Assembly (NCBI RefSeq): GCF_900100855.1
Contig: NZ_FNCB01000019.1
Location: 1-37,493 of the forward strand
Direction of reading: 5' to 3'
From: Idiomarina zobellii
GTDB taxonomy: Bacteria > Pseudomonadota > Gammaproteobacteria > Enterobacterales > Alteromonadaceae
DNA: 37,493 nt
Part shown: in pieces, positions 20,547-34,236 of the stretch
How the letters are laid out: each line of letters starts with the position of its first letter
Position numbering within the stretch: position 1 is the stretch's first letter
The notes under the pieces: generated by a model
Seen by the model: only the letters and a program-made list of their open reading frames with translations
Database searches by the model: none
What the model was told of the DNA's origin: nothing
Translations under genes and position numbers: made by a program

Positions 20547-20571
20547 GATATTGATTTTTAAGACTGTATCT
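20510..20571 (+). other. attTn7: attTn7: TnsD recognition region and insertion point
   Basis: The last codons of glmS plus the downstream 25 bases. In Tn7, TnsD binds within the glmS 3' end and directs insertion about 25 bp past the stop. Here the transposon begins at 20572, and the first copy of the target duplication TATCT is 20567-20571. The spacing agrees with classical Tn7. Confidence 0.9.
20567..20571. repeat. Target-site duplication, right copy (TATCT)
   Basis: TATCT directly precedes the transposon right end and is repeated exactly at 34232-34236, directly after the left end. Five bases is the Tn7 duplication length. Confidence 0.93.
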
Positions 20572-20636
20572 TGTCGGCGTACATTAAAGTTCTTAATAAA
20601 CATTAAAGATCTTAAATGAGACATTAAAGTTGTTAA
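20572..20636 (+). repeat. Right end with three clustered TnsB-type sites
   Basis: After the terminal TGTCGGCGT, three copies of ACATTAAAGNTNTTAA lie at 20581-20596, 20600-20615 and 20621-20636, in the same orientation, 19 and 21 bases apart. Tn7's right end has closely packed TnsB sites; this compact array fits. Confidence 0.88.
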
Positions 20637-20730
20637 ATTGTAGTGGTTGCTGTTAGTTGTTTTTTGATGCTTTCTTGTCCAAACTAATGCTCGTAATAAA
20701 TTTTAGAATATATTCTCACATAAGATTCTT

Positions 20731-21804
20731 GTGAATAAACCGGATAGAGAATTCAAGATGCATTTAAATTTAGGGCAAGTGACACTTATTGATTTAGTTG
20801 AGCAAGTCGAACGAAAAGAAGTTCTTATCAATAAAGAGTACCAAAGAGGCTCAGGTCTTTGGCCTGACTCTGCCAGATCGTATTTTATTGATACCATATT
20901 GGAAGGTTACCCATTCCCTAAAATATATTTATATCAAATATTTAATGAAATGGTTAACAGACCAATAAAAGAGGTGGTAGATGGTCAACAGCGATTAACC
21001 ACAATTATAGATTTCTATTCAAATAAATTCCGCTTAACGTCGGCTTCACGTGATTATAAGGGGATGAAGTTCGAAGATTTGGATGATGATGCGAAGCAAC
21101 GATTTATTTCGTATCAGATTGAGGTCTCAACCATACTGTCAGCGAAACGCTCTGAACTTCTAGAAATGTTTAGACGAATAAATGCTTACACGGCTCCGTT
21201 ATCTGCCGCCGAGAAAAGACATGCTACTTATCAGGGAGCATTTAAATGGTTTGTGGTAGAAATGTCAGATAAGTACTCACCAGCCCTTGAAGGTCTAAAA
21301 GTCTTTACTTCCAAGCAGTTAGCAAGAATGCACGACTCTGAATTTATTGCCGATCTAATCTTGGCTTTAGAATCAGGAATAGTGCAAAAGTCGGCTTCCT
21401 CAATAGAAAAACTATATAAAAAGTACGAGAAAGAATTTCCACATTCTGACTACTATTACGAAGTAATCGACTCATTCTTCCAGGTTCTTGCTACCGATTT
21501 CGAACCATTGTACGACACCTTCATGATGAAATCCTATGCATTGAACTCACTGTTCTGTGCGTATACACATTGCAAGTTTGGGCTTCCTGGAGTAGAGCAG
21601 TTTACTGATGTTAGGCCCGATCTGGAATTCAAAATTGATAAGGAACGAGTCTTACCGAAACTTGAGGAGCTTGCGAGCGCTCATGAAAATCAGGATGAAG
21701 ACGGTGAGCACAAAGTATATGTGAAAGCTTGTATGTCTAGTACTACCAAAGCTCCCCAGAGAAGAGCTAGGTTCAAAGTGCTCTGTGATGTGCTAACTCA
21801 CTAG
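20731..21804 (+). CDS. DUF262 (ParB/Srx-fold) protein, cargo
   Basis: A 357-aa protein with an N-terminal DUF262 domain. The motifs are NKEYQRGSGLW (~34-44) and the DGQQRLTT box at 84-91, the mark of this ParB-related nucleotide-hydrolysing fold. IYLYQIF lies between them. DUF262 is the core of GmrS-like modification-dependent nucleases and recurs in phage-defence proteins. The C-terminal ~150 aa have no motif I can name; I see no HNH (DUF1524) pair, so catalysis may come from the partner gene. The GTG at 20731 lacks a strong ribosome binding site; the ATG at 20758 (MHLNLGQVTL) is an alternative. The next gene starts 2 bases after its stop, so they act together. It sits between the transposon right end and tnsA. 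Confidence 0.8.
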   Translation: MNKPDREFKMHLNLGQVTLIDLVEQVERKEVLINKEYQRGSGLWPDSARSYFIDTILEGYPFPKIYLYQIFNEMVNRPIKEVVDGQQRLTTIIDFYSNKFRLTSASRDYKGMKFEDLDDDAKQRFISYQIEVSTILSAKRSELLEMFRRINAYTAPLSAAEKRHATYQGAFKWFVVEMSDKYSPALEGLKVFTSKQLARMHDSEFIADLILALESGIVQKSASSIEKLYKKYEKEFPHSDYYYEVIDSFFQVLATDFEPLYDTFMMKSYALNSLFCAYTHCKFGLPGVEQFTDVRPDLEFKIDKERVLPKLEELASAHENQDEDGEHKVYVKACMSSTTKAPQRRARFKVLCDVLTH

Positions 21805-21806
21805 TA

Positions 21807-22457
21807 ATGCATTTAGCTAAAGCTTACAAAAAATTTAACTCACGGTGCTTCTCCTATAAATCGAGAGCCGATGAGATATATCTGAAGAGGAGAAAGCTTT
21901 CAAAATGGGAGTTTAACTACCTAACCGAAGTTCTTCTTTCAGATATGTGGCAGTCCTGGTGTAAGTTTAACCGAACCATGTTCCTGAGCTCTTGTTGGGG
22001 AACTAAAGCGCGTAATGGTGATTTGATTACAGGGATTGCGGCAGGGAAGTCTTGGCAAAGGCTTTGCTATGAGGCTAAGCAAAGTGCTTTTGGTAACAAT
22101 ACAACTCCCCGAGGCCATTTGAACTTCTTGATGAGAAAGGAACCTACTTGGGGAGATCTTGATGTATTTCTTCGAATTATCTCTAGAGTCCAACCAAGTA
22201 ATGAGCAGCAACTATCAACAGCTTATGGTAGCTTTCATAATATCAAACAGCTTCAAATTATCAGAAATGCCTGTGCCCATAAAAACCAAGAGACTTTTCT
22301 AGATGTTAAGCTTTTAAATCGACACTATTCTGGTGCCGCTATAAGCAGGCCTACTGAAGTAGCTTGGAAATTTAATCCTGCTAAACGAGCTCTTGCGGTA
22401 GATATATGGCTACATGAAATGAGAAAGATAGCTGAGTTAGCAACATCAACGACTTAG
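21807..22457 (+). CDS. HEPN-like protein partnered with DUF262 gene, cargo
   Basis: A 216-aa, basic, mostly helical protein. Near residues 150-160 it has LQIIRNACAHKNQE, which contains the Arg-x4-His pattern (RNACAH) that forms the RNase active site in HEPN domains. The rest (for example WQSWCKFNRTMFLSS and the aromatic N-terminal third) fits a helical HEPN-type bundle but I cannot assign a subfamily. Its start follows the DUF262 stop by two bases, so the pair is translationally coupled. By analogy with other HEPN pairs it could be a cell-suicide or anti-phage RNase controlled by the DUF262 protein. That role is inference. Confidence 0.6.
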   Translation: MHLAKAYKKFNSRCFSYKSRADEIYLKRRKLSKWEFNYLTEVLLSDMWQSWCKFNRTMFLSSCWGTKARNGDLITGIAAGKSWQRLCYEAKQSAFGNNTTPRGHLNFLMRKEPTWGDLDVFLRIISRVQPSNEQQLSTAYGSFHNIKQLQIIRNACAHKNQETFLDVKLLNRHYSGAAISRPTEVAWKFNPAKRALAVDIWLHEMRKIAELATSTT

Positions 22458-22458
22458 T

Positions 22459-22486
22459 TTGATAAACCGAGTAACTCGGTTATGCT
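22459..22486 (+). promoter_or_regulatory. tns operon promoter with operator dyad in its spacer
   Basis: TTGATA at 22459-22464 and TATGCT at 22481-22486 are 16 bases apart, and the spacer is filled by the perfect dyad AACCGAG-TAA-CTCGGTT (22465-22481). The placement suggests a dimeric regulator binding over the polymerase. tnsA starts 26 bases downstream. No binding protein is known from this sequence. Confidence 0.55.
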
Positions 22487-22512
22487 GAAACAAAGCAGAT
22501 CGAGTTGATGAC

Positions 22513-23343
22513 ATGGCAAAATCAAAATACTCGCTGAGCGAGACGCAGATTGCGAAAAGAATAAAGGAAGGACGCGGATCTGGCTCCGGCGCGGATTACA
22601 GCCCTTGGGTGCGAGTCGATGAACTTCCATCTCTAGGCCGATCCCGGCAGGTCTACTCTCATCTCACCAAACGCATCCACCACCTACTTTCTGATCTCGA
22701 ATTTGCCGTTTTCCTGTTGCTTGATAACAACCCTTTCGTTACCGACATACGCGAACAATTTCCCCTTATTCGCGATAACACGCGTGATATTGCCCGGGAA
22801 AATAATTTACCTCACCCTGCCAACAATGGCGTCGATACGGTCATGTCGTCAGACTTTTTAGTAGATTCCACAGACAAATTAGAGCCCAAATTCGTGCTAC
22901 AAGCCAAGTACACAGATAGCCTTGATGATGCTCGCATCGTCGAAAAGTTAGAAATTGAACGTCGTTACTGGAAGCAAAAGGAACTTCCCTGGTATCTCGT
23001 TACTGAGCGTGAAATTGATCCAGTAGCCAAGGCAAATATTGACTGGCTGTATGTTGTTAAAGGAGAGCTCGAGTCGGGTGACAAGGTTATCACGGCGTCG
23101 AGTCTGGCGATGTTTAAGGCGGCAGTCGCTGATAACCCGGGACTCAATATTATTGAGCTGTGTAAAGCCATAGACCGGGCTTATGACCTTGATCTGGGCG
23201 AATCACTTTATGACTTAAGGGTGCTCTGTGCATCCCGGGTTATTACGTTTGATGTCAGAAAACCATTCAGAAAACTGAGTGGAAAAGATTTTACGTGTCA
23301 CGAGTTAGAGAGCTTGGGAGGTGCGGTGAATGTGGCGAGTTAA
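22513..23343 (+). CDS. tnsA: Tn7-like transposase subunit TnsA (endonuclease)
   Basis: TnsA makes the 5' cuts at the transposon ends, letting the element excise as in cut-and-paste. At 276 aa it is close to Tn7 TnsA (273). The restriction-enzyme-like catalytic triad falls at the same positions as in Tn7: Glu63 (LSDLEFAVF), Asp114 (MSSDFLVD) and Lys132 (LQAKYTD). A winged-helix-like C-terminal half follows (~170-276). It overlaps tnsB by 14 bases, so translation is coupled. Intact and probably active. Confidence 0.95.
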   Translation: MAKSKYSLSETQIAKRIKEGRGSGSGADYSPWVRVDELPSLGRSRQVYSHLTKRIHHLLSDLEFAVFLLLDNNPFVTDIREQFPLIRDNTRDIARENNLPHPANNGVDTVMSSDFLVDSTDKLEPKFVLQAKYTDSLDDARIVEKLEIERRYWKQKELPWYLVTEREIDPVAKANIDWLYVVKGELESGDKVITASSLAMFKAAVADNPGLNIIELCKAIDRAYDLDLGESLYDLRVLCASRVITFDVRKPFRKLSGKDFTCHELESLGGAVNVAS

Positions 23344-25423
23344 TGATGTTGTTGAATATGACAACAAGCGGTACCGCATCTTATTCGTCGAGAGCACCCG
23401 GCTTGTTTGGTTGTGCATTGATGAGAATAAAGGAATACCCACCTCAGAATATATTGATGTGCTTGAGGACTTAGTTGCTTCCGGCCAACTCATTCGTGTT
23501 GATGACCCTTTCGCTGAACTCCAGGTATTGACGCCGGAAGAAGATAGCTCTGACTACAAACACCGTGAAAAAGCCTACCAGGCAATAAAGGACATTATCT
23601 CAGATGAAAAAATGTATTTTAAGAAAGAGCGCGCCGCACTGCTTAAACGTGTCGCTGAAGAATCAGAAGTCAGTGTTCCCACACTCTACAAATACTTGAG
23701 ACGGTACTGGCAACGAGGGCAGCTTAAAAATGCGCTGCTTCCCGACTTTAAGAACTCTGGTGCGGCCGGTAAGCCTCGAAACTTTAAAGACAAAACGCCC
23801 GGGCAACGTCGAATACACAGCCCCGGAAATACAGTGCCGTTAAATGATGATATACGGCGACTGTTTCGACGTACTATAGAAACGGTGTTACTTAACGACA
23901 AGAATATGTCTGTCAGCTATGCGTACCGTAAGTTTGCTTCAGCTTATAAGTTCGCAAACCCAGATGCCAGTGAAGAGCAGATACCAACCTATCGACAGTT
24001 TCAGCATTTTTATCTTCGTGAATATGAAAAAACCGACAAGCTTATAGCGCAAACACCTGTGACCAACTATCGCAAAGATGTTAGGCCGTTACACGGCACA
24101 GCAACCGAGCAAGCACTAGGCCCGGGGAGCCGTTACGAGATTGATGCGACAATTGCTGACATCTACCTGGTTGATGATGACGATTCCGAGAAAGTCATCG
24201 GGCGACCAACCATATACATGGTGATTGATGTTTTTAGTCGAATGGTAACGGGGTTTTATATTGGCGTAGATAACCCGTCTTATGTGGTTGCGATGAAGGC
24301 TTTAACGTCCAGTTTTGGCGATAAAACCGAAGTGTGCAAGAAGTTCGGCATGGATATTTCACCGGAGGGTTGGCCGTCAGTTGGTTTGCCGGATGTTGTT
24401 CTTGCCGACAGAGGTGAGTTAATGAGCCATCAGGCTCAATACTTGATTGAAGGACTGGGAGTCCGGCTGGAGAGTGCGCCGCCCCGCCGTGGTGATGCTA
24501 AAGGGATAGTGGAGCGCTTTTTTAAGACTATTCAGGGCACCTTCAAGCCATATTTACCGGGTGTTGTTGAAGGCAATCGGATCAAAAAACATGGTGAGAG
24601 TGATTATCGTGCGGAAGCTAAAATCTCGATGAACGACTTCACTGAAATAATGCTTAATGCCATCATTAATCACAACCTGCATAAACCCATGAAAAAGTAT
24701 GACCGGGCAGCGGATATTCCAGAAGAGGTTCCGTCAGTTCCTATTCACCTATGGAACTGGGGCATTCAGAACCGTGTTGGAAAACTTCGGAATGTCGACG
24801 TGAACCTTGCCCGGGTCGTTTTATTACCCAGGAAGAAAGTTACCGTTTCTGAGCAAGGTGTAAAACTCTGGGGGCTGACATATACAGGCCGAGAGCTGAT
24901 TGAAGCCGGATGGATGCATCGGGATTCATCCGTTAAAAGGCCGAAAGGCCTTATGGCTGCTTACGACCCGGGAAGCGCTAACCATATTTACTTGTTTCCG
25001 GAAGTGGGTAAGAAACTGTTCTGGACTTGTGATTTATCGACTCGAAGCCGTGAGTTTCGAGATCTTACCTGGAAGCAAGTTTGGGAGAGGCAGCAAATCA
25101 TTAAAGGTGCTCATGCAAAAGCTGAACAAGGATACGCGCCTAAAGCCCGGGAACTTGATCAGCTTATCGAAGATAAGGTTAAAAAAGCAACCAAGGGTGG
25201 CAGTGGATCAAAAAGCAGTGATGCTGAGCGTATTCGCAACATAAAGAAAAATAAAGCGGAAGCCAGAGAGCAAGAACGTCGGGATACGGCAGTTCGCCCT
25301 GAACGGGATAATAAAAAAGAACCGGCAAAAGTGGTTCCTATTAAGCACTCAAATGACGAGACTTACGATTACCCTGATTATCTGTCAGAGCTGTTTGGTG
25401 ATGACTCGGAGCCGAACTCATGA
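23330..25423 (+). CDS. tnsB: Tn7-like transposase subunit TnsB (DDE)
   Basis: TnsB binds the end repeats, cuts the 3' strands and joins them to the target. It is 697 aa (Tn7 702). The DDE triad is complete: Asp272 ([12 protein letters not shown]), Asp360 ([10 protein letters not shown]) and Glu395 ([12 protein letters not shown]), each one residue before the Tn7 numbers. An N-terminal DNA-binding region includes a helix-turn-helix ([14 protein letters not shown], ~115-128). The C-terminal tail is Lys/Glu-rich and ends [12 protein letters not shown], the part that contacts TnsC in this family. It overlaps tnsC by 4 bases (ATGA). Confidence 0.96.
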
Positions 25424-26175
25424 CATTTGATGGTATTGAATCAATAACCGCCGGTTATCATGATACCGGTGTGGAAAGTTACCGTGGCAACCCTCTGATT
25501 GAGGCTTTACCACCGATAAAGTCGGTAAAAAATATTGCTGAGTCTTTGAAAATTGATGCTCATTGTCGACCGGAAGACTTACTTGCTTCGGGACACGTCA
25601 GAGCCCACTCAATTAGCCGTCTCACAGATGAGTTCTTTCAACCGCTATCAACACACGTACAACTGGAAGAGAAGCTGTCCATTATGATCCGTGGTGGTTA
25701 TGTTGGCCGCAATCCAAAAAATGGATCAAGACAAAAGCACCTTCAGAACGGCTACGAGCGATTATTAACGGGCGACCTATCGGCTTTTCGCTTTGATGAA
25801 GTGAAATCAACCGCTCAAAGTATGTCGATTATTGGTTGCTCCGGCAGTGGTAAAACGACAACCATCGGCCGGGTGCTCTCTGGTTACCCCCAAGTCATTT
25901 ACCATCCTGATTATAACCTTGAGCAGGTGGTTTATCTGAAAGTTGATTGTTCGTTTGATGGTTCTCTTAAAGGCATTTGCCAGAACTTTTTTAGGGCGTT
26001 AGACCGAGTTCTAAATACGCACTATGAACAACGTTACGGTATGAAGCGCCACAGCGTAGAGAACATGCTGGCCATTATGGCTCAAATTGCTAATTCGCAT
26101 GCCCTGGGCGTTCTTATTATTGATGAGATCCAGCATTTGAGCCGATCAAAGTCAGGTGCTCTGAAAAAATGCTGA
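25420..26175 (+). CDS. tnsC: Tn7-like ATP-dependent regulator TnsC, N-terminal part
   Basis: TnsC is the AAA+ ATPase that links the target selectors (TnsD or TnsE) to the TnsAB transposase. This 251-aa reading frame holds Walker [10 protein letters not shown] at 139-147 and Walker [11 protein letters not shown] at 231-240, then stops at TGA 26173-26175. The stop comes in the middle of the AAA+ core, just before a segment that matches the usual continuation in another frame. The junction is at CTGAAAAAATGC (A6 at 26164-26169). Together the two frames give about 553 aa, against 555 in Tn7. Whether this is decay, a sequence error, programmed frameshifting or two coupled polypeptides cannot be decided here. 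Confidence 0.9.
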
Positions 26176-27077
26176 ATTTCTTTGTAACTTTGGTGAATAC
26201 CATCGGCTTGCCGGTTGTTCTTGTTGGCACGCCCAAAGCAAAAGAAATATTTGAAGTCGACTTGCGTTCAGCAAGACGCAGTGCGGGATTTGGCGCGATT
26301 TTCTGGGAGCCAATGAAACAATATCAGTCAAATGGTCGCCCGGGGGAATGGCACGCATTCACTAACAAGCTTTGGAAACTCCAATGGCTCAAACATCGCG
26401 ATGAGCTGCTGACTGATGACATCAGAAACACCTGGTACGACTTAAGCCAGGGCGTGTTGGATATTGTGGTTAAGTTATTTGTTTTAGCGCAATTAAGAGC
26501 CATAGCGACGGGAATAGAACGCATTACTTCGGGCTTATTGCGACAAGTATATCAGGATGAATTAGGTCCGGTGCATCCTATGCTGGCAGCGCTTCGCTCG
26601 AATGACATAGAAAAAATTGCGGAGTATTCAGATCTTAGGTTAAAGGATACGGATAAACGCCTACTTGAATTACAGTCCCAGATTGATGAAGCGTCGATTG
26701 CCTCTGATGAAATGGATGAGCTTGTTTCGGATGATGAAAAGCGGCTGTATATGATGCTCAGTCAGTTTGGATACGATGATAGCTCTCTGCTTCTTGAAAC
26801 GGTTAAACGCGCTTTCAATGAGCATCCTGACGCATCGCTTCAGGAACTATTGCCCATTGTATCGTCGTGGTTATCTGCTCCAGAGCATGATGACGTAAAA
26901 GCGGCGCCTAAAAAGCAAAAGACCAAGCGCCTGAAAAAAGACGAGTGGCATACACTAGCTACAGAAGACCTGAGGTTTTTATCTTCGCAAAGCAGCTCTA
27001 AAGACGAAGCTTATGAAACGCTTAAATCGTCTGGCCTCATATTTCCGATGAACAAATGGATGGATAAGGTCGGCTGA
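26169..27077 (+). CDS. tnsC: Tn7-like ATP-dependent regulator TnsC, C-terminal part
   Basis: The remaining TnsC (302 aa from the ATG at 26169), in the -1 frame relative to the first part. It starts [20 protein letters not shown], carrying the sensor 1 strand (VVLVGTPKA, Thr as in other TnsC proteins), then the lid domain and the C-terminal region that contacts TnsA/TnsB. Its ATG overlaps the upstream stop by seven bases (ATGCTGA). Reinitiation after the TGA is therefore possible in principle, but the product would lack the P-loop and could work only in complementation with the N-terminal part. tnsD starts one base after its stop. Confidence 0.9.
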
Positions 27078-27078
27078 A

Positions 27079-28584
27079 ATGACGAGTGTTCCTGTCCCCT
27101 ATCCTAATGAGCTGATTTACAGTGTCATAGCGAGGACAGGCGTTAATGAAGCCATTTCCAGCCCTAAGCAGTTGCTCGATGAAGTCTTTGGCAACCGTAA
27201 GGTGATATCAACGTTAGATTTACCCAGCCACATTGAGAAGATTAGCCAACACTTGGCAAGAGCAGGCCAATATTCTGCTGAAAAACTGATTTACCAACAT
27301 ACCCTATTCCCTTTTTATGCACCGTTCGTACCCGAGTCAATTCGACAGCGTGCGATAAAACTAATGTCAGGGTTCAGCAATGGTGCGGTTCATATGATGC
27401 TCGGTGTCGCTGCATCCAGAGTAAAAGCGGTAAACTACTTTCGTCTTTGCCCTTCTTGTATGGAAAATCAAATAAGGGATTACGGAGAAACCTTCTGGGA
27501 TAGACGGTGGTTTATTCCTGGACTCAATACCTGCGTATGTTCCGCATGCCTGAAGAATTTACCGGAAAGTTGGCAAGAGCATCGACACGCCTACGTTTTG
27601 TGTCCCACCACTATAAAAAATGAGTCAGAAGTAACTGGTAAAGTTTACCCGGGCTTGCTTAAGCTGTGCTCATCAGCAAACGAGGTCTTATCGCTACAGG
27701 CAATGGAGTCGGCGTCATTTGATCAATGGACGTCTTTTTATCAGGCATTAGCGGCTGACAACGCAATGACCAGAGGGCGTTATGCAGACCATGAGCAGAT
27801 AGCAGAAGCATTGCTGTCCTGCTTTCCGAGCTCTGCTCTTCAAGAGCTTAATTTAGACTTTGACGTCAAAAATGACACGAACTGGCTGAAAACTATTTTC
27901 CGTAAGCACCGGAAATCATTCAGTGCCTTGCAGCACTTAATGGTATGGCAAGCATTAAAATTGAAGGGGACGGTCGCGGAAACGATCCATGAAGTAAAGA
28001 AAAAGCGGGCTGTACCTATTCGCCGTCTTGTTAAGCAAAAGACCAAAGGGCAAGTCGATATCTATCGAGCGAAGTGGCAATCACTACTGCGTCGATTAGA
28101 AATAAAGGAAGCGAGGCGTGCTGAAGGAGGCGTTTATGCATGGCTTTATCGGCATGATAGGCAATGGTTAATAGACTTTAATGCAGGCAGGAGGCGGAAA
28201 CGTAACGGGCATAAACCGATAAACTGGCATTACCGTGACTTAACATTAACGCGGCGATGCTTAGAGCTTATAGCAGAAAAGGACTCTGATCTAAGCTCTC
28301 CCCGGTTATCTAAACTTTGGTTGATTAACCACCTTCCTCATGGCCGTTCATCTGCTAAAAAGCTCACCAAGCTCCCAATACTCGATCACTGTCTCGATAC
28401 TTACTCGGAATCCATAACGGATTATCAAATAAGAAGATTGACTTACGCTGCTTACCAACTTCTGCGTCAGCATGAAGAGCTGGCTCACTGGCGTCTGTTG
28501 CGACTGGCCGGGTTGAGTATCGAACGGATTACTGATGAAGCTAATGACTTTTTAAGAGAGGTTATTCTTCGTGTCAGACACTAG
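27079..28584 (+). CDS. tnsD: Tn7-like target selector TnsD (TniQ family, attTn7-specific)
   Basis: TnsD binds the glmS 3' end and recruits TnsC, giving insertion at attTn7, which is exactly where this element sits. 501 aa (Tn7 508). The N-terminal TniQ domain (~1-165) starts PYPNELIYSVIARTG and has a zinc-binding cluster: Cys124 and Cys127 (LCPSC), then Cys154 and Cys157 (CVCSAC), where most TniQ proteins have Cys-x2-His. The C-terminal two-thirds is the basic DNA-binding part with helix-turn-helix-like blocks. It overlaps tnsE by 14 bases. Confidence 0.93.
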   Translation: MTSVPVPYPNELIYSVIARTGVNEAISSPKQLLDEVFGNRKVISTLDLPSHIEKISQHLARAGQYSAEKLIYQHTLFPFYAPFVPESIRQRAIKLMSGFSNGAVHMMLGVAASRVKAVNYFRLCPSCMENQIRDYGETFWDRRWFIPGLNTCVCSACLKNLPESWQEHRHAYVLCPTTIKNESEVTGKVYPGLLKLCSSANEVLSLQAMESASFDQWTSFYQALAADNAMTRGRYADHEQIAEALLSCFPSSALQELNLDFDVKNDTNWLKTIFRKHRKSFSALQHLMVWQALKLKGTVAETIHEVKKKRAVPIRRLVKQKTKGQVDIYRAKWQSLLRRLEIKEARRAEGGVYAWLYRHDRQWLIDFNAGRRRKRNGHKPINWHYRDLTLTRRCLELIAEKDSDLSSPRLSKLWLINHLPHGRSSAKKLTKLPILDHCLDTYSESITDYQIRRLTYAAYQLLRQHEELAHWRLLRLAGLSIERITDEANDFLREVILRVRH

Positions 28585-30163
28585 GTTTAAAAATATTGAG
28601 AACAATTCGGAACTGCTGCATCTAGGCGATCTCTTCCGGAGCACGACAGCAAAATACTGGCGTATTAATGCTTGGTTGAGTCCGATACAGAATAAGCGTC
28701 ATGCTGCCTTCTCTAACTTACCCATGCTTGCCCGGGGGCGGGTGCTGAACGCCATAGGTGAAAAACCTAAGCGGGACAGAGCTTCGTGTTCAATCACCCG
28801 GGATTCAATAATTAGTGAATGCAATTTGAACGAGTTTCCGGAGTTTGCCTACGCCTCATTAGCGAAAGCAGAAGCGCGTCAAAAAGGGTTCCTAGTAGAA
28901 ACGCAAGGGAAGCCAAGTTTTATTATTCCACAGCTAGAGCTTGCGCGTGTTTTGTTTTTACACTCCGGATACCTGTGCCGGGCGGCACTTACCTCTGAAA
29001 CATTAACGCATGAGTTTGACGTTCAGGAGCGTTTAAACGAGGGAAAAGTGATTGTTAATGTCTTAAAGCTATCCACCTTTCCAAAAAAAGCGTTTGATGA
29101 TGCCGGTACCCGACGGATGTTAGCCTGGCTTTTGATAGATCGTAATGCTCGTAAGTCATTTGAAAGCATTTTTCGGTACTATAAGCAGTTCTCCAGAGTG
29201 AATAACGGCTGGGAAATGTGGACGTTTTCATTTGAACCGCCTCAAATGTTTGGTTGGTCTTTTACCTTCCATGGTCGAGCGGATGAAGCCAGCAATAAGT
29301 TCTTTGTGGAAGAAATTACGGATTTAACCTTTCACGGAAGCTTGCCGGATAGAGTGTTGTTCCAGCACGACTCATTTAAACGCTATGAAGATAAATCAAC
29401 CGGAGGCACACCGAACGGGTCTCCGTGGACACAGCGTCCGGATGAGCATGAAATTAATGATGACGAAACCGCATCGAATAATAACGAACCTGTCATTTTG
29501 AGAAACGACATCCACACCATTAATTTCCTTGGGCATACCCAAACCGCCAAAGTGAATCAGGTAGTCGAGAGTGACACAGGGGCTTTGAACCCTGAACCAA
29601 ATGAGGTTGCCAGCGAAGAGGTCAGCACCGACGAACCTACGGAAGGCGGGAAACTTCCCGCTGCTGATTTTACAGGGCCTAATGACGCGACAGATTTAAG
29701 CCGAATGTGTGAGAGTCGCTTTGAGGCCTTTAATCACATGTTGGAACTACTTCAGAAGAATGGAGTGACTTTGCTATCAAAAGAAACAAAAGCTCTGCCG
29801 CAGTCAGGACGAGGCCAAAAGCATTTGTTGAAGAACGGTGAGCCCAGGGTCATTTGTTGCGCTGAGGTGAGTTTTGAGGGGCGGCATGCGTATATTTTGG
29901 AGGTTGATACATCGGATGGTGTTAGCAAACTTTCATCTAAGATTTTTAGTTGCAGTTCATCAAAGCTCTATGAGGTCTGGGATACTTTAGTTATGGGAGT
30001 AACTTCAAAAAAACTAAGTTGGCCAGCTAGCTTAATAAATGAAAACTTTAATAGAGAGAGTATAGCGAGCGTTAATCATCCGAGGAATGCCGGATCGGGA
30101 CAGGGAAACATTCCAGCCGATGCGATTACTAACTGGGCACTCAGTTTTTTAATAAGACTATAA
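28571..30163 (+). CDS. tnsE: Tn7-like target selector TnsE
   Basis: TnsE steers Tn7 to replicating DNA and conjugating plasmids through the sliding clamp and 3' ends, favouring horizontal spread. This 530-aa protein (Tn7 538) is last in the tnsABCDE operon, the expected position, and shows the TnsE-like N-terminus (KYWRINAWLSPIQNKRH) and C-terminal DNA-binding region (~370-530). The GTG at 28571 lies within the end of tnsD. The residues ~295-370 between the two halves are acidic and low-complexity. Presence of both TnsD and TnsE marks a classical Tn7 lineage. Confidence 0.9.
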   Translation: MSDTRFKNIENNSELLHLGDLFRSTTAKYWRINAWLSPIQNKRHAAFSNLPMLARGRVLNAIGEKPKRDRASCSITRDSIISECNLNEFPEFAYASLAKAEARQKGFLVETQGKPSFIIPQLELARVLFLHSGYLCRAALTSETLTHEFDVQERLNEGKVIVNVLKLSTFPKKAFDDAGTRRMLAWLLIDRNARKSFESIFRYYKQFSRVNNGWEMWTFSFEPPQMFGWSFTFHGRADEASNKFFVEEITDLTFHGSLPDRVLFQHDSFKRYEDKSTGGTPNGSPWTQRPDEHEINDDETASNNNEPVILRNDIHTINFLGHTQTAKVNQVVESDTGALNPEPNEVASEEVSTDEPTEGGKLPAADFTGPNDATDLSRMCESRFEAFNHMLELLQKNGVTLLSKETKALPQSGRGQKHLLKNGEPRVICCAEVSFEGRHAYILEVDTSDGVSKLSSKIFSCSSSKLYEVWDTLVMGVTSKKLSWPASLINENFNRESIASVNHPRNAGSGQGNIPADAITNWALSFLIRL

Positions 30164-30261
30164 TTATCGGTTTATAATTTTGTGATAAATTTGTGGTTTT
30201 CCTTTATTTAAATTACTTTATCAACCTAGGGAAGAAAAATAAAAACTCCATGGGAGATTTG

Positions 30262-31752
30262 ATGTCTAACGAAAACACAAAGTGGTGGGAAAATAGGGTT
30301 CTAAGATCAGTTGATAATTTAAAATTATGGAATGAAAACCCTCGTCTCGATCCATCCAGTAAGCTGGTAACTGTGAGAGATTATGCCGAAGAGCTTATTT
30401 CAGACCCCAGTGATAAACAAAACTTCATTATACTTTTAAAATCAATTGCGAAACGGGGGTTTGTGTCTTTCGATCCTGTTGTCGTGTGGAAAGATGACGA
30501 TGAGCGATTTGCTGTAGCGGAGGGAAATCGACGGGTAACAGCATTGAAGCTTCTACGATCACCTGAGAAAGCTCCTATGCCGATCCGAAAGCTGGTTGTA
30601 TCGCTTGCTCGACAGATAGATAGAGATGACATTGAGAAGATTAAAGTAAGTCTGGCACCATCATTTGAAGACGCCAGGTGGTATATACTTCAGAGACATT
30701 CCACAGCCACTAACCAAATAAGATGGCAGAGGTTGCAACAACAAAGGTTCATTATAAATGTCTATGATTCGGTAGGTCAGGATTTGGAGGAAACCATTGC
30801 CATTACTGGATTTAAACGTGCCGCTATCCTAGATTCCTTGCGATACGTTAAGATTCGGGATATGGCGACTCGGCCTGGGGTTACAGCCCATCTAACAGAA
30901 GATGAGAAGGAAAAAGTTTACAGCCATCGAATTAATATGACAGTGATAGAAAGGTGGTTTGGTAACAGCCAAGTCAGAGAAGCTTGGCACATTAAGTTTA
31001 GCGATTCAGAAGTTAATATAGATGCTAACCTGAGCAGCTTTTATAAAGCTTACGCTGAGTTTTTAAAGCTAACTTTCAGCAAAGACAATGAACTTGGATA
31101 CTCCGTAAATACCAGGACTATAGACAGCAAATTTCAAGAAATATTTGAATACCTTCCCAAGGTAAAGCCGAAAGGTGAAGAAGAGGAAGATGAAGCACCA
31201 GTAGCTGATGAGCAAGAGAAGAGTGATAACGATAAAGAGAGTGAACAGCAACAAAGCGATGATGAAAAACCTGACAAAAAAGACAGATTAAAAGGAAATC
31301 CTAAACGCGGTCAGTTTACCGACAAATACCACACTATCAACTCAAAAAGCTATAAATTGAATGCGCTCTTCGATGAATTAGGTAGGCTTCCGGTGAAAAG
31401 ATATTCAAACGTAGCGGCCGCCTCCCTAAGGATTTTTTTAGAACTCTCGGTCGATGATTTTATCAAGAGCAATGACTTCACTGGCGAGGTGGCCAGACGA
31501 TTAAAAAAAGGCTATCATGAAGTCACATTACAGCAAAAACTGAATGTGCTGCGAGGTGAGTTTATAGATGACCGAGAAGCAAACAAGGTTATTGGTCAGC
31601 TGTTAAACAATAGCAACGATTATAGTTTAAATACTTTGAATGAATACATTCACGGTACGAAGGTTCACAAAGTAGAGCCTCAATTCCTAAATAGATTTTG
31701 GGATATGTTATCTCCTCTATTGGAGGTATTAGTCGAGTTGAGAGAAATATGA
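30262..31752 (+). CDS. ParB/Srx-like domain protein, first gene of cargo trio
   Basis: A 496-aa protein. Residues ~15-100 form a ParB/Srx-like domain: DNLKLWNENPR at the front and the nucleotide-binding box AEGNRRVTALKLL (EGNRR at 87-91), the counterpart of GERRxRA in ParB. A helical middle follows. A strongly acidic, Glu/Asp/Gln/Lys linker (~295-340, e.g. EEEEDEAPVADEQEKSD) separates the last ~140 aa, which resemble no family I know. I chose the ATG at 30262 because GGGAG at 30252-30256 precedes it; an in-frame GTG at 30193 lacks a site. It is not a partition ParB: no HTH or ParA partner. It overlaps the methylase start (ATGA), so the two are co-translated. Confidence 0.7.
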   Translation: MSNENTKWWENRVLRSVDNLKLWNENPRLDPSSKLVTVRDYAEELISDPSDKQNFIILLKSIAKRGFVSFDPVVVWKDDDERFAVAEGNRRVTALKLLRSPEKAPMPIRKLVVSLARQIDRDDIEKIKVSLAPSFEDARWYILQRHSTATNQIRWQRLQQQRFIINVYDSVGQDLEETIAITGFKRAAILDSLRYVKIRDMATRPGVTAHLTEDEKEKVYSHRINMTVIERWFGNSQVREAWHIKFSDSEVNIDANLSSFYKAYAEFLKLTFSKDNELGYSVNTRTIDSKFQEIFEYLPKVKPKGEEEEDEAPVADEQEKSDNDKESEQQQSDDEKPDKKDRLKGNPKRGQFTDKYHTINSKSYKLNALFDELGRLPVKRYSNVAAASLRIFLELSVDDFIKSNDFTGEVARRLKKGYHEVTLQQKLNVLRGEFIDDREANKVIGQLLNNSNDYSLNTLNEYIHGTKVHKVEPQFLNRFWDMLSPLLEVLVELREI

Positions 31753-32645
31753 ATTTTTTTTCGCCATTGCGCTACCCAGGGGGTAAGTCGAAACTAACGC
31801 CCTATGTGCTTGAAACCCTTAAGCTTAATAAGCTGGATGGGTGCGCATATGTGGAGCCATTTGCTGGGGGGGCTGCCATTGCGTGGTATCTTTTATTGAA
31901 TGGACATGTCAACAGGATTTATATAAACGATTTAGATCCAGCCATTCACGCGTTTTGGTATAGCTCCTTATATAGAACGGAAGAGCTTTGTGAGCTGATA
32001 AGAACTACACCGATAACTATTGATGAGTGGTTTCGACAGCGAGAAATTTATCGCGAATCGCCAGAAGACTTTCTTCGTCTTGGGTTCGCTACGCTATTTT
32101 TAAACCGTACCAATAGATCAGGAATACTAAAAGGTGGCGTGATTGGCGGGTTAGAGCAAAAAGGAGCATACAAGCTCGACTGCCGTTTTAATAAAGAGAA
32201 GCTAATAGAAAGGATTGTAGCTATAGGAGAACGGAGAGCTGATGTCAGGCTTAGCAACCTAGATGCAACGATTTTTATTGAAGAGCATATCCCCGATATC
32301 GAGGGGCAGGCGTTTGTTAATATCGATCCTCCTTATTACGTAAAAGGCAAAGGGCTTTACCAGAACTTTTTTGAACACGATGATCATTATCGGTTATATG
32401 AAAGCATCGTGAGGTTGGTACAACCATGGATAGTTACATACGACGATACGCCTGAGATATGTGGAATTTATTCAGAGTTCCAACCAGAGCCCTTTGGTCT
32501 CACCTACACGGCTCAAACGAAGTGTAAAGGCTCGGAGATTATTGTCCACTCAGATAGCTTGAGAAAAGCCAATTTCAAACCAGACATTACTTTTGGTGAG
32601 CTACGTAAATTAAAAAAGCTAAGCTCGCTGTCACCAGATTCCTAA
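31749..32645 (+). CDS. Dam-type (D12 class) DNA adenine-N6 methyltransferase, cargo
   Basis: A 298-aa D12-class adenine methylase, which transfers methyl from SAM to adenine N6. The SAM-binding motif RYPGGKSKL sits at 8-16 (PGGK 10-13), with VEPFAGGAA at 35-43. The catalytic motif IDPPYY is at 192-197 (DPPY 193-196). The segment LFLNRTNRSGILKGGVIGG is typical of the target-recognition region. The start at 31749 overlaps the stop of the ParB-like gene by four bases; an in-frame ATG 51 bases upstream is inside that gene and less likely. Target sequence is unknown; GATC is common in this class. No recognisable restriction enzyme is adjacent, so the role is either self-marking for the ParB-like partner or an orphan methylase. 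Confidence 0.88.
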   Translation: MNFFSPLRYPGGKSKLTPYVLETLKLNKLDGCAYVEPFAGGAAIAWYLLLNGHVNRIYINDLDPAIHAFWYSSLYRTEELCELIRTTPITIDEWFRQREIYRESPEDFLRLGFATLFLNRTNRSGILKGGVIGGLEQKGAYKLDCRFNKEKLIERIVAIGERRADVRLSNLDATIFIEEHIPDIEGQAFVNIDPPYYVKGKGLYQNFFEHDDHYRLYESIVRLVQPWIVTYDDTPEICGIYSEFQPEPFGLTYTAQTKCKGSEIIVHSDSLRKANFKPDITFGELRKLKKLSSLSPDS

Positions 32646-32664
32646 AAGTTTGAAGGCTCAATGT

Positions 32665-33678
32665 ATGAAGGCAATGGTTTCCGTAGTTCTTCTTGTACTA
32701 AGTTTTAGTGTCTTAGGTCAAGAAGCTGCTGTATCGAAAAAGGTTGAAACAGACCCAGGTAACGAAGAGAAAGTAGAGGCAAGCCCTGCCGTTCAGGATA
32801 AGCTTGTAGTTTCGGCCTCTGAGATAGATAGGATGCTATCTATCAAGGGAATTAAATCAAAGCAAGAGTTGATGAGTACTGCTTTTAGCTCGAATAGGAG
32901 CTTAGCCCTAGCAAGTTTTGGTTTTTCTCTTACAATTCTCTTAGGTGGCGCAATTTTTGTAGTGGTTAATCATGGACGGCTAGATAAGCTTGTAGATTCA
33001 TATTCCAAGAAACTCGAGGGAATTGAAGAAACAGAGATGAGACTTAAGAAGAAGGTTGACGAGCTTGATGAGCATAAATCAGTGCATATGGCGTTCGGAG
33101 ATTTATTAACATCTCAAGGCCTTATTGCTAGGCTAAGCTCTGTGATGATTAACCTTACGGCATCGTGCGACGAAGCATCCAAGAAGGAAATGAACCACGA
33201 CGTATCTGGCGACCTGAAAATGATCCATGAACGTATTTATGAAATGTGTCGAGAGATTCATGAAGTTGGCAGTCAGGCTTTAATGAAACTTCAGACTGCA
33301 AGAAGAGAACTGAAATCCGTTCGGTCATCTACAGTCGCTACGGGTGAGCTTGAGACGCATATCTGCATAGAACTTGCAAGAATACACACGCTGAATGCAT
33401 TGGCATATAAGCGCTTATGGGGGATTTCTTCTAGTGAAACAGATTTGCTCAAGGCTACAGACGAGATTAAAAGTGCTGAGCAAGAAGCAAAGAAATGCGA
33501 AAATGAATCTTTATTGGCAAAAGTAAAGTATAACTATGCATGTTACTTGAATCTAAGCGGAAACCAGAGTCGTGCGGAACACTTACTAAGGGAAGCGTGT
33601 GAGCTAGAGTCAAGATATGTAAACAAGGCAAAGACAGATCCGGACTTAAAGCGACTTGTGCTATGTGGGGAAGGTTGA
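32665..33678 (+). CDS. Exported/membrane coiled-coil protein with TPR-like tail, cargo trio
   Basis: A 337-aa protein I do not recognise. It opens with a signal peptide (MKAMVSVVLLVLSFSVLGQ), then a low-complexity Glu/Val/Lys segment, a membrane helix (ASFGFSLTILLGGAIFVVVNH, ~82-102) and a coiled coil (~105-145, SKKLEGIEETEMRLKKKVDEL). A helical region follows and a final TPR-like repeat (YNYACYLNLSGNQSRAEHLLREACEL). I chose the ATG at 32665 because GAAGG lies 8 bases before it and it begins the signal peptide. It follows the methylase by 19 bases, making a trio. A membrane-anchored sensor or effector is conceivable; that is speculation. Confidence 0.6.
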   Translation: MKAMVSVVLLVLSFSVLGQEAAVSKKVETDPGNEEKVEASPAVQDKLVVSASEIDRMLSIKGIKSKQELMSTAFSSNRSLALASFGFSLTILLGGAIFVVVNHGRLDKLVDSYSKKLEGIEETEMRLKKKVDELDEHKSVHMAFGDLLTSQGLIARLSSVMINLTASCDEASKKEMNHDVSGDLKMIHERIYEMCREIHEVGSQALMKLQTARRELKSVRSSTVATGELETHICIELARIHTLNALAYKRLWGISSSETDLLKATDEIKSAEQEAKKCENESLLAKVKYNYACYLNLSGNQSRAEHLLREACELESRYVNKAKTDPDLKRLVLCGEG

Positions 33679-33718
33679 TATATTTAACAGGCCTACTGTA
33701 AAGGAGAGGAGCTACATC

Positions 33719-33757
33719 ATGAGTTTTATCAAGAGAGATGAGTCTTGGTGGGTTTAA
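33719..33757 (+). CDS. Possible 12-codon micro-ORF with strong RBS
   Basis: AAGGAGAGG at 33701-33709 is an excellent ribosome binding site, ten bases before an ATG that opens MSFIKRDESWWV then TAA. Tandem Trp codons followed 18 bases later by a strong terminator (33775-33799) recall leader-peptide attenuation, but downstream is only a 68-aa orphan. Translation is unproven. Confidence 0.25.
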   Translation: MSFIKRDESWWV

Positions 33758-33772
33758 AAACATAAAATTCTC

Positions 33773-33799
33773 GAAGCCCGGCTTATGCCGGGCTTTTTC
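33773..33799 (+). terminator. Intrinsic terminator after the cargo trio
   Basis: AGCCCGGC-TTAT-GCCGGGCT followed by TTTT: an 8-bp GC-rich stem with a TTAT loop, downstream of the trio and the micro-ORF. Confidence 0.85.
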
Positions 33800-33820
33800 G
33801 TTTTAGGAAGGAGCTATTAT

Positions 33821-34027
33821 ATGATTGATAAAATGAGCAAAGACGAGCTGAAACATGCTGTTTACGCAATTGACTATGCCTTGCTAAGTAAAAGCATCGG
33901 AGAAAAGCATGATGACTCTAAAACTCTGGAAAAAATAAGTACAGAGTCATTACAAGAAGCACGTACTAAGCTCGTAGAAGCCTTAGGCAAGGACGTAGGA
34001 CTTCATCCTCCCGGGCGTGGAAATTGA
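33821..34027 (+). CDS. Small orphan protein of 68 aa, cargo
   Basis: A soluble, helix-forming protein with AGGAAGGAG at 33805-33813 ahead of its ATG. It starts MIDKMSKDELKHAVYAID and is rich in Lys and Glu, ending GLHPPGRGN. No family recognised. It is the last gene before the transposon left end and lies after a terminator, so it must have its own promoter or arise from readthrough. It could be a small regulator or antitoxin-like protein; nothing proves that. Confidence 0.5.
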   Translation: MIDKMSKDELKHAVYAIDYALLSKSIGEKHDDSKTLEKISTESLQEARTKLVEALGKDVGLHPPGRGN

Positions 34028-34095
34028 AGTTTGATAACCCCTGCCGGTTTCTGAGTATTTACATACCTCATTGTCTACAAAGCGCTAAATGAAAA

Positions 34096-34231
34096 TTAAG
34101 ATCTTTATTGTTTAGGCACTTATCTTAACGGCAATAAATTTTTAAGATCTTTAATGTTAGATAGAAAAGCTTTTTTATTGCAATTAACGGTTTTATTGAC
34201 AAAAAGTTTAAATCTTTAATGTACGCCCACA
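34096..34231 (-). repeat. Left end with three spaced TnsB-type sites
   Basis: Reading inward from 34231: terminal TGTGGGCGT, then ACATTAAAGATTTAAA at 34207-34222, ACATTAAAGATCTTAA at 34142-34157 (identical to right-end site 2) and ACAATAAAGATCTTAA at 34096-34111. Spacings of 65 and 46 bases match the looser layout of the Tn7 left end. Confidence 0.88.
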
Positions 34232-34236
34232 TATCT
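34232..34236. repeat. Target-site duplication, left copy (TATCT)
   Basis: Exact copy of the 20567-20571 sequence, directly following the left transposon end; the original glmS downstream sequence resumes here. Confidence 0.93.

What the first reader, a model, noticed from the sequence alone, without database searches (positions are those of the whole stretch)
30262..33678. Unnamed three-gene cargo: ParB-like protein, Dam-type methylase, membrane coiled-coil TPR-like protein
The genes are tightly coupled (ATGA overlap, then a 19-bp gap), so they form one functional unit. A ParB/Srx domain with EGNRR, a separate adenine methylase and a membrane-anchored protein with a coiled coil and TPR-like tail do not match any defence or restriction system I can name. 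A model: the methylase marks self DNA, the ParB-like protein reads or loads onto unmarked DNA, and the membrane protein transmits or executes. This is the best candidate here for an undescribed system.
Basis: partly seen in the sequence, partly recalled or inferred. Interest (0 to 1): 0.72.

Follow-up and report, generated by a model that had tools for sequence, protein, structure and literature searches.

The report
Known PD-Lambda-5 pair plus orphan neighbour
The first two genes are a known two-gene anti-phage system (PD-Lambda-5) riding on a Tn7-like jumping element, and the third gene is an orphan membrane protein that sits behind them here but was not found beside them in the other places examined.

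Summary
Gene A (30262-31752) and gene B (31749-32645) match PD-Lambda-5_A and PD-Lambda-5_B (E 1e-240 and 5e-116), the two genes of a defence system found in E. coli by Vassallo et al. 2022 (PMC9519451). In 46 distinct loci with an A relative, B lies 3' of A on the same strand in 40; gene C (32665-33678) is in 0. C had no convincing relative in the collections searched. The closest relative of the pair (97.8% identical DNA) diverges 27 bases before B's stop and lacks C. Pair and C are cargo of a delimited Tn7-like transposon (20572-34231, TATCT duplication) beside glmS; two sister copies carry other cargo. Likely mechanism (inferred): B marks self DNA by adenine methylation; A, a ParB-like protein whose C-terminal domain resembles HEPN toxins, acts on unmarked DNA and causes abortive or direct restriction. 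C is best read as a separate membrane protein gene sharing the transcript; a role in the system is not excluded. New member of a known kind.

The parts
30262..31752 (+). Gene A, PD-Lambda-5_A: ParB-like N-terminal part (NPR 26-28, EGNRR 87-91), ParB-type helical/HTH region (about 147-296), low-confidence linker (about 307-341), HEPN-like C-terminal domain (about 360-494)
   Evidence: PADLOC PDLC03995 E 1.1e-240, residues 1-496; alignment of 29 A sequences; model and structure comparison
31749..32645 (+). Gene B, PD-Lambda-5_B: D12-class (Dam-like) N6-adenine DNA methyltransferase, 298 aa, ATGA overlap with A
   Evidence: PADLOC PDLC04018 E 4.8e-116; Pfam PF02086 E 3e-15; DPPY 193-196 with D, P, P, Y invariant in 14 aligned sequences
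32665..33678 (+). Gene C, orphan membrane-anchored coiled-coil/TPR protein, 337 aa; neighbour, not a conserved component
   Evidence: NCBIfam NF047558 35.7 bits; hydrophobic segments; in 0 of 46 loci with an A relative
33773..33796 (+). Terminator-like hairpin (10 pairs, 7 G-C) after C
   Evidence: number of hits in the region not above shuffles
33821..34027 (+). 68-aa ORF between the hairpin and the transposon end
   Evidence: coding-like codon score; no PHROG match
20572..34231 (+). Tn7-like transposon that carries the trio: TGTCGGCG...CGCCCACA ends with repeated motifs inside each end (read as TnsB sites)
   Evidence: inverted repeats I1, I3, I7-I9, I12; sequence read
20567..20571 (.). Target-site duplication TATCT, glmS side (the other copy is 34232-34236)
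34232..34236 (.). Target-site duplication TATCT, far side
20731..22457 (+). Second cargo pair between the right end and tnsA: DUF262/GmrSD_N protein (20731-21804) and 216-aa partner (21807-22457)
   Evidence: Pfam PF03235 E 2e-21; PADLOC NsnA E 1e-35
22513..30163 (+). tnsA, tnsB, tnsC (read as two overlapping ORFs), tnsD, tnsE
   Evidence: Pfam TnsA, Mu-transpos_C, Tn7_TnsC_Int, TnsD/TniQ, TnsE_C matches

Best explanation
A+B is a PD-Lambda-5 anti-phage system carried as cargo of a Tn7-like transposon at the glmS site (identity: about 0.95). B methylates adenines in a motif of its own and so marks the host chromosome. A is the sensor and effector in one chain: a ParB-like nucleotide-binding N-terminal part and HTH region engage DNA, and unmarked incoming DNA lets A switch or load, which turns on its C-terminal HEPN-like domain (RNA cleavage or another toxic act) or DNA nicking by the ParB/Srx part, giving a compact restriction-modification-plus-abortive-infection response (mechanism: about 0.45). 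C is a separately acquired membrane-anchored coiled-coil/TPR protein that shares the transcript and is not a component. Shown: family membership, A-B coupling, absence of C in the other loci examined, transposon borders. Inferred: self-marking, nucleotide binding, the trigger, the effector act, the shared transcript, the role of C.
Confidence: 0.7

Rival explanations
1. A three-component system: C is the membrane-bound transmitter or executioner, making this a PD-Lambda-5 variant with a membrane arm.
For: 19-bp gap, same strand, no terminator-like hairpin found on that strand between B and C and one after C; a sister transposon also ends its cargo with a protein having a signal-peptide-like start, a TM and predicted coiled coil (L059 15690-16850).
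Against: C is in 0 of 46 loci with an A relative, absent from the 97.8%-identical relative and from the E. coli pair opened. The L059 protein shows no convincing similarity to C (BLAST E 0.27; phmmer E 0.0075 at 1.7 bits in a one-sequence search), and the methylase gene before it ends 391 bp upstream.
Confidence: 0.12
2. Plain restriction-modification: the ParB/Srx part of A is a DNA nickase/nuclease that cuts unmethylated phage DNA, and the C-terminal domain only dimerises or binds.
For: A paper passage describes ParB/Srx proteins that nick DNA (PMC12839542, passages); EGNRR is invariant while the HEPN catalytic motif is not; an adenine methylase is beside A in 40 of 46 loci.
Against: No nuclease family was found in A; the authors of PD-lambda-5 suggest RM plus Abi.
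Confidence: 0.25
3. A and B are not a defence system but a maintenance or regulatory pair of mobile elements: B shields the element's DNA from host restriction and A regulates or partitions.
For: Found on P2-like phage, plasmids and Tn7-like elements; A is ParB-like; in Vibrio phage ValB1MD-2 a gene annotated ParA lies about 1.7 kb from the pair, on the other strand.
Against: PD-lambda-5 affected plaquing or plaque size of all but one of 10 phages (PMC9519451, section 7); no ParA-type family was seen among the window genes scanned beside A.
Confidence: 0.06

Closest known systems
PD-Lambda-5 (PD-lambda-5), Vassallo et al. 2022
   Same: ParB-like protein followed by a D12 adenine methylase; both match the system's PADLOC models; B is 45% identical over 277 residues to the B of an E. 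coli P2-like prophage pair
   Different: Carried on a Tn7-like transposon at glmS; A-B overlap by ATGA rather than a 69-nt gap; an extra gene C follows; A only 23-38% identical in local pieces to that prophage A. Whether that prophage pair is the clone tested by the authors was not checked
HEPN toxins (HepT/MntA, HEPN-MNT, Csm6 HEPN domain)
   Different: No conserved RX4-6H; fused to a ParB-like protein
ParB/Noc CTPases
   Same: N-terminal NPR and EGNRR motifs (likened to ParB boxes from recall) and ParB HTH-like region
   Different: Below Pfam and NCBIfam cut-offs; C-terminal domain different
Tn7 (tnsABCDE, attTn7 at glmS)
   Same: All five tns families, ends TGT...ACA, 5-bp duplication, insertion 25 bp after the glmS stop
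   Different: Has cargo also between the right end and tnsA; tnsC reads as two overlapping ORFs in this assembly

Membership tests
PD-Lambda-5 | Full-length A component | tested here: met
   PDLC03995, residues 1-496 to profile 1-503 of 503, E 1.1e-240
PD-Lambda-5 | B component (adenine methylase) | tested here: met
   PDLC04018, residues 4-279 of a 300-aa frame to profile 3-279 of 291, E 4.8e-116
PD-Lambda-5 | A and B adjacent, same strand, A first | tested here: met
   ATGA overlap; B 3' of A in 40 of 46 distinct loci; same order in the E. coli prophage pair
PD-Lambda-5 | Reduces phage plaquing | not testable with these tools
   No experiment; reported for the E. coli system (PMC9519451, section 7)
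Three-gene system A-B-C | C co-occurs with A-B | tested here: not met
   C in 0 of 46 loci; 35 of the 40 with B had at least 1.1 kb held 3' of the B match
HEPN RNase | HEPN fold | tested here: inconclusive
HEPN RNase | Conserved RX4-6H motif | tested here: not met
   H464 invariant in 29 of 29 but R 5-7 residues before it in 0 of 29; RX5H at 413-419 not conserved
ParB CTPase fold | ParB family match at curated cut-off | tested here: not met
   Pfam ParB_N best E 0.018 in 6 of 15 members; NCBIfam parB_part 14.7 against 58.45 bits; PHROG 1033 ParB-like E 7.9e-5
ParB CTPase fold | Nucleotide binding | not testable with these tools
   Motif evidence only
Tn7-like transposon | tnsABCDE, paired ends, 5-bp duplication, site at glmS | tested here: met
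   uninterrupted glmS-permease sites in G517 and G518
Type II restriction-modification | Separate restriction endonuclease | tested here: inconclusive
   Methylase present; no nuclease family found in A or C

The most novel reading that the evidence does not exclude
C is a recently recruited third component that ties PD-Lambda-5 to the membrane: A's NTP switch on unmarked DNA is relayed through the cytoplasmic coiled-coil/TPR part of C, giving a membrane-acting PD-Lambda-5 variant; the unrelated signal-peptide/TM/coiled-coil protein at the same last cargo place of a sister transposon would be a second such recruitment.
Probability: 0.1. Interest if true: 0.55.

Novelty: new member of a known kind. 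Interest (0 to 1): 0.3.

Why it matters
It places PD-Lambda-5, reported from prophages, ICEs and genomic islands (PMC12824646 and PMC12629846, passages), among the cargo next to tnsE in Tn7-like elements of three hosts (this one, Rheinheimera, Pseudoalteromonas), and gives a testable reading of a system whose mechanism I did not find described in my searches: a ParB-like DNA sensor fused to a HEPN-like effector and kept in check by its methylase. It also shows that tight spacing alone is weak evidence for a functional unit in transposon cargo.

Tried and rejected
C as a conserved partner: searched in plasmids, phages, genome contigs (24 pattern stretches, 0 relatives), IMG/VR (4 stretches, 0) and samples of 147 family, 369 class and 398 phylum genomes (the window's own genome is in each); apart from itself, one marginal match (E 0.006, query residues 210-303, L094), not followed. 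The pattern-based scans only reach close relatives, so distant ones are not excluded.

A by sequence in the PDB: none at E 1 or better; C likewise; B matches one chain, an adenine methylase, 7m6b. Foldseek of A in the PDB gave 26 hits, none at E 0.001 or better, and in BFVD one such hit, a Vibrio phage ValB1MD-2 protein. The C model is poor and its matches (mostly 14-3-3 and TPR-like helical repeats, best E 0.013) carry little weight.

E. coli search with the Yokenella pair DNA: 102 records, none with 80% of the query; the listed rows cover 18%, under a DNA adenine methylase; the one opened (L025) lies beside an AAA ATPase and an integrase, a different arrangement. Pfam scan of nine A proteins, some of them already, showed no HEPN family.

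Loci with an A-like match but no B 3' on the same strand: L004, L006, L007, L033, L098, L099. Their A matches cover little of A (L004 none by tblastn at E 0.01; the others at most 178 residues). L098 has a B-like frame on the opposite strand; in L033 another 900-bp gene follows; L004, L006 and L007 are short stretches of about 3.3-3.7 kb.

Literature: searches listed no paper whose shown text describes the mechanism of PD-lambda-5 or a ParB+Dam+membrane trio; I saw passages of PMC9519451 (and its section 7), PMC12824646, PMC12839542, PMC12704722, PMC10952713, PMC8649781 and PMC12629846, and listings of the rest; figures and supplements were not seen. The table row in PMC10952713 lists HEPN for PD-T4-2, PD-T4-5, PD-T7-3 and ApeA, not PD-lambda-5. 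PMC8649781 (Tn7-like cargo) has no 'ParB' in its main text.

Full report
What is there. The three genes exist as described: A 30262-31752 (496 aa), B 31749-32645 (298 aa, ATGA overlap) and C 32665-33678 (337 aa, 19 bp after B). C looks like a genuine coding frame by codon usage and length. A terminator-like hairpin follows C at 33773-33796 and none was found between the genes on this strand, so a common transcript is possible, though neither promoter nor terminator counts exceed shuffles.

A and B are PD-Lambda-5. In PADLOC-DB, A matches PD-Lambda-5_A (PDLC03995) end to end with E 1.1e-240, and B matches PD-Lambda-5_B (PDLC04018) with E 4.8e-116. A pair from an IMG/VR prophage contig (L090) gives PD-Lambda-5_A (PDLC03998, E 8e-168; PDLC03995 itself E 2e-28) and the same B model (E 1e-121); 22 of 5426 E. 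coli genomes hold that pair at 99% identity or more in a near-identity search, and in the one opened, strain KH_005, it lies between a replication endonuclease gene and the portal gene, without a third gene. Vassallo et al. 2022 (PMC9519451; [quoted passage not shown] I could not check that the L090-type pair is the clone they tested.

C is not part of the conserved unit. I collected A relatives from genome contigs, IMG/VR, plasmids and phages and G-handle genomes. tallies 46 distinct loci, the window left out and repeats of one place or contig counted once (L008 and L031; L020, L021 and L023 with L028-L030; L073 and L074 with L016 and L017): B, by tblastn at E 0.01, lies 3' of A on the same strand in 40; six lack it (L004, L006, L007, L033, L098, L099, all with weak or short A matches); C is in 0 of 46. 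In 35 of the 40 at least 1.1 kb is held 3' of the B match (not in L005, L019, L022, L028, L092). Several rows are near-duplicates (L017/L018; L087-L091), so these are not 46 independent events. H5 is a second record of the phage of L027 and was not opened. The most telling case is L019: 1204 bp at 97.8% identity that stop at window 32618, 27 bases before the end of B, with unrelated sequence after it; its A is only a C-terminal remnant (residues 384-496). Beyond A loci, C was found only in its own genome apart from one marginal match.

Setting. The trio sits in a delimited Tn7-like transposon: tnsA-E family matches, ends TGTCGGCG (20572) and CGCCCACA (34231) with repeated motifs inside each end, and a 5-bp duplication TATCT on both sides, starting 25 bp after the stop of glmS. 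Downstream of glmS I read up to about 18 kb in 18 other same-genus genomes (two stretches, L064 and L072, too short to judge): A, B and C occur in 0 of 18 at E 1e-5. G517 and G518 are uninterrupted glmS-permease sites. G519 and G072 carry a sister transposon (tnsA, tnsB, tnsD about 95-97% identical in protein, tnsE 85-87%) whose DNA match to the window ends within tnsE, with other cargo after it: in G519 an ATPase with weak Lamassu LmuB similarity and a methylase, in G072 a cytosine-methylase-like protein (my reading) and a protein with sub-cut-off similarity to BbrUII/HgiDII restriction enzymes. In Rheinheimera baltica (L009) and Pseudoalteromonas amylolytica (L010) A-B also follows tnsE directly, although tnsB is only 42-46% identical while A is 67-69% and B 77-78%. 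So A-B appears to move as a block between Tn7-like elements, P2-like phages and plasmids, independently of tns genes.

What C might be. A membrane protein with a probable signal peptide or first TM, a second TM at about 79-104, helices and a TPR-type end, without convincing relatives. In the sister transposon of G519, the last large cargo gene before the presumed left end also encodes a protein with a signal-peptide-like start, one TM and heptad-like helices (L059 15690-16850), without convincing similarity to C. I treat C as an independent accessory gene, with about 0.1 for a real role with A-B.

Verdict. A correct observation of a known two-gene defence system in a well-delimited transposon, with an orphan gene behind it. 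New member of a known kind; modest interest because the system's mechanism is open and the HEPN-like end of A makes it testable.

Noticed in passing
20731-22457: DUF262/GmrSD_N protein (NsnA-like in PADLOC) plus 216-aa partner without family, placed between the transposon's right end and tnsA; both 98.6% identical in the same place in sister genome G519 (L059). Probably a second defence cassette.
   Followed up: partly
25420-27077: tnsC reads as two overlapping ORFs here but as one uninterrupted frame in L059 and L069; either an assembly error or an element no longer able to move by itself.
   Followed up: partly
33719-33757: Twelve-residue ORF (MSFIKRDESWWV) with a strong ribosome-binding-like sequence just before the terminator-like hairpin; with up to 4 substitutions seen only in the window and its own copies among the loci held.
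   Followed up: partly
33821-34027: 68-aa ORF with coding-like codon use between the hairpin and the left transposon end; no PHROG match.
   Followed up: no
L059 15690-16850: 386-aa protein with signal-peptide-like start, TM and heptad-like helices as last large cargo gene of a sister transposon: same kind of architecture and place as C, no convincing sequence similarity.
   Followed up: partly
L027 3132-4684 and 7273-7911: Vibrio phage ValB1MD-2 (Peduoviridae) carries the same pair, but its A is annotated as two overlapping ORFs; a gene annotated ParA lies about 1.7 kb further on the other strand.
   Followed up: no
L019 6001-7235: IMG/VR contig with terminase- and capsid-like ORFs (my reading, not searched) holds a near-identical B but only the last 113 residues of A.
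   Followed up: partly
L009 9482-11047, L010 9469-11034: In Rheinheimera and Pseudoalteromonas Tn7-like elements an ATPase gene (AriA/PtuA/GajA-like in PADLOC for the L009 copy) follows A-B instead of C.
   Followed up: partly
L098 4001-6908: Vibrio campbellii replicon with an A-like match and a B-like frame on the opposite strand: a possible rearranged relative, not annotated in the record.
   Followed up: no
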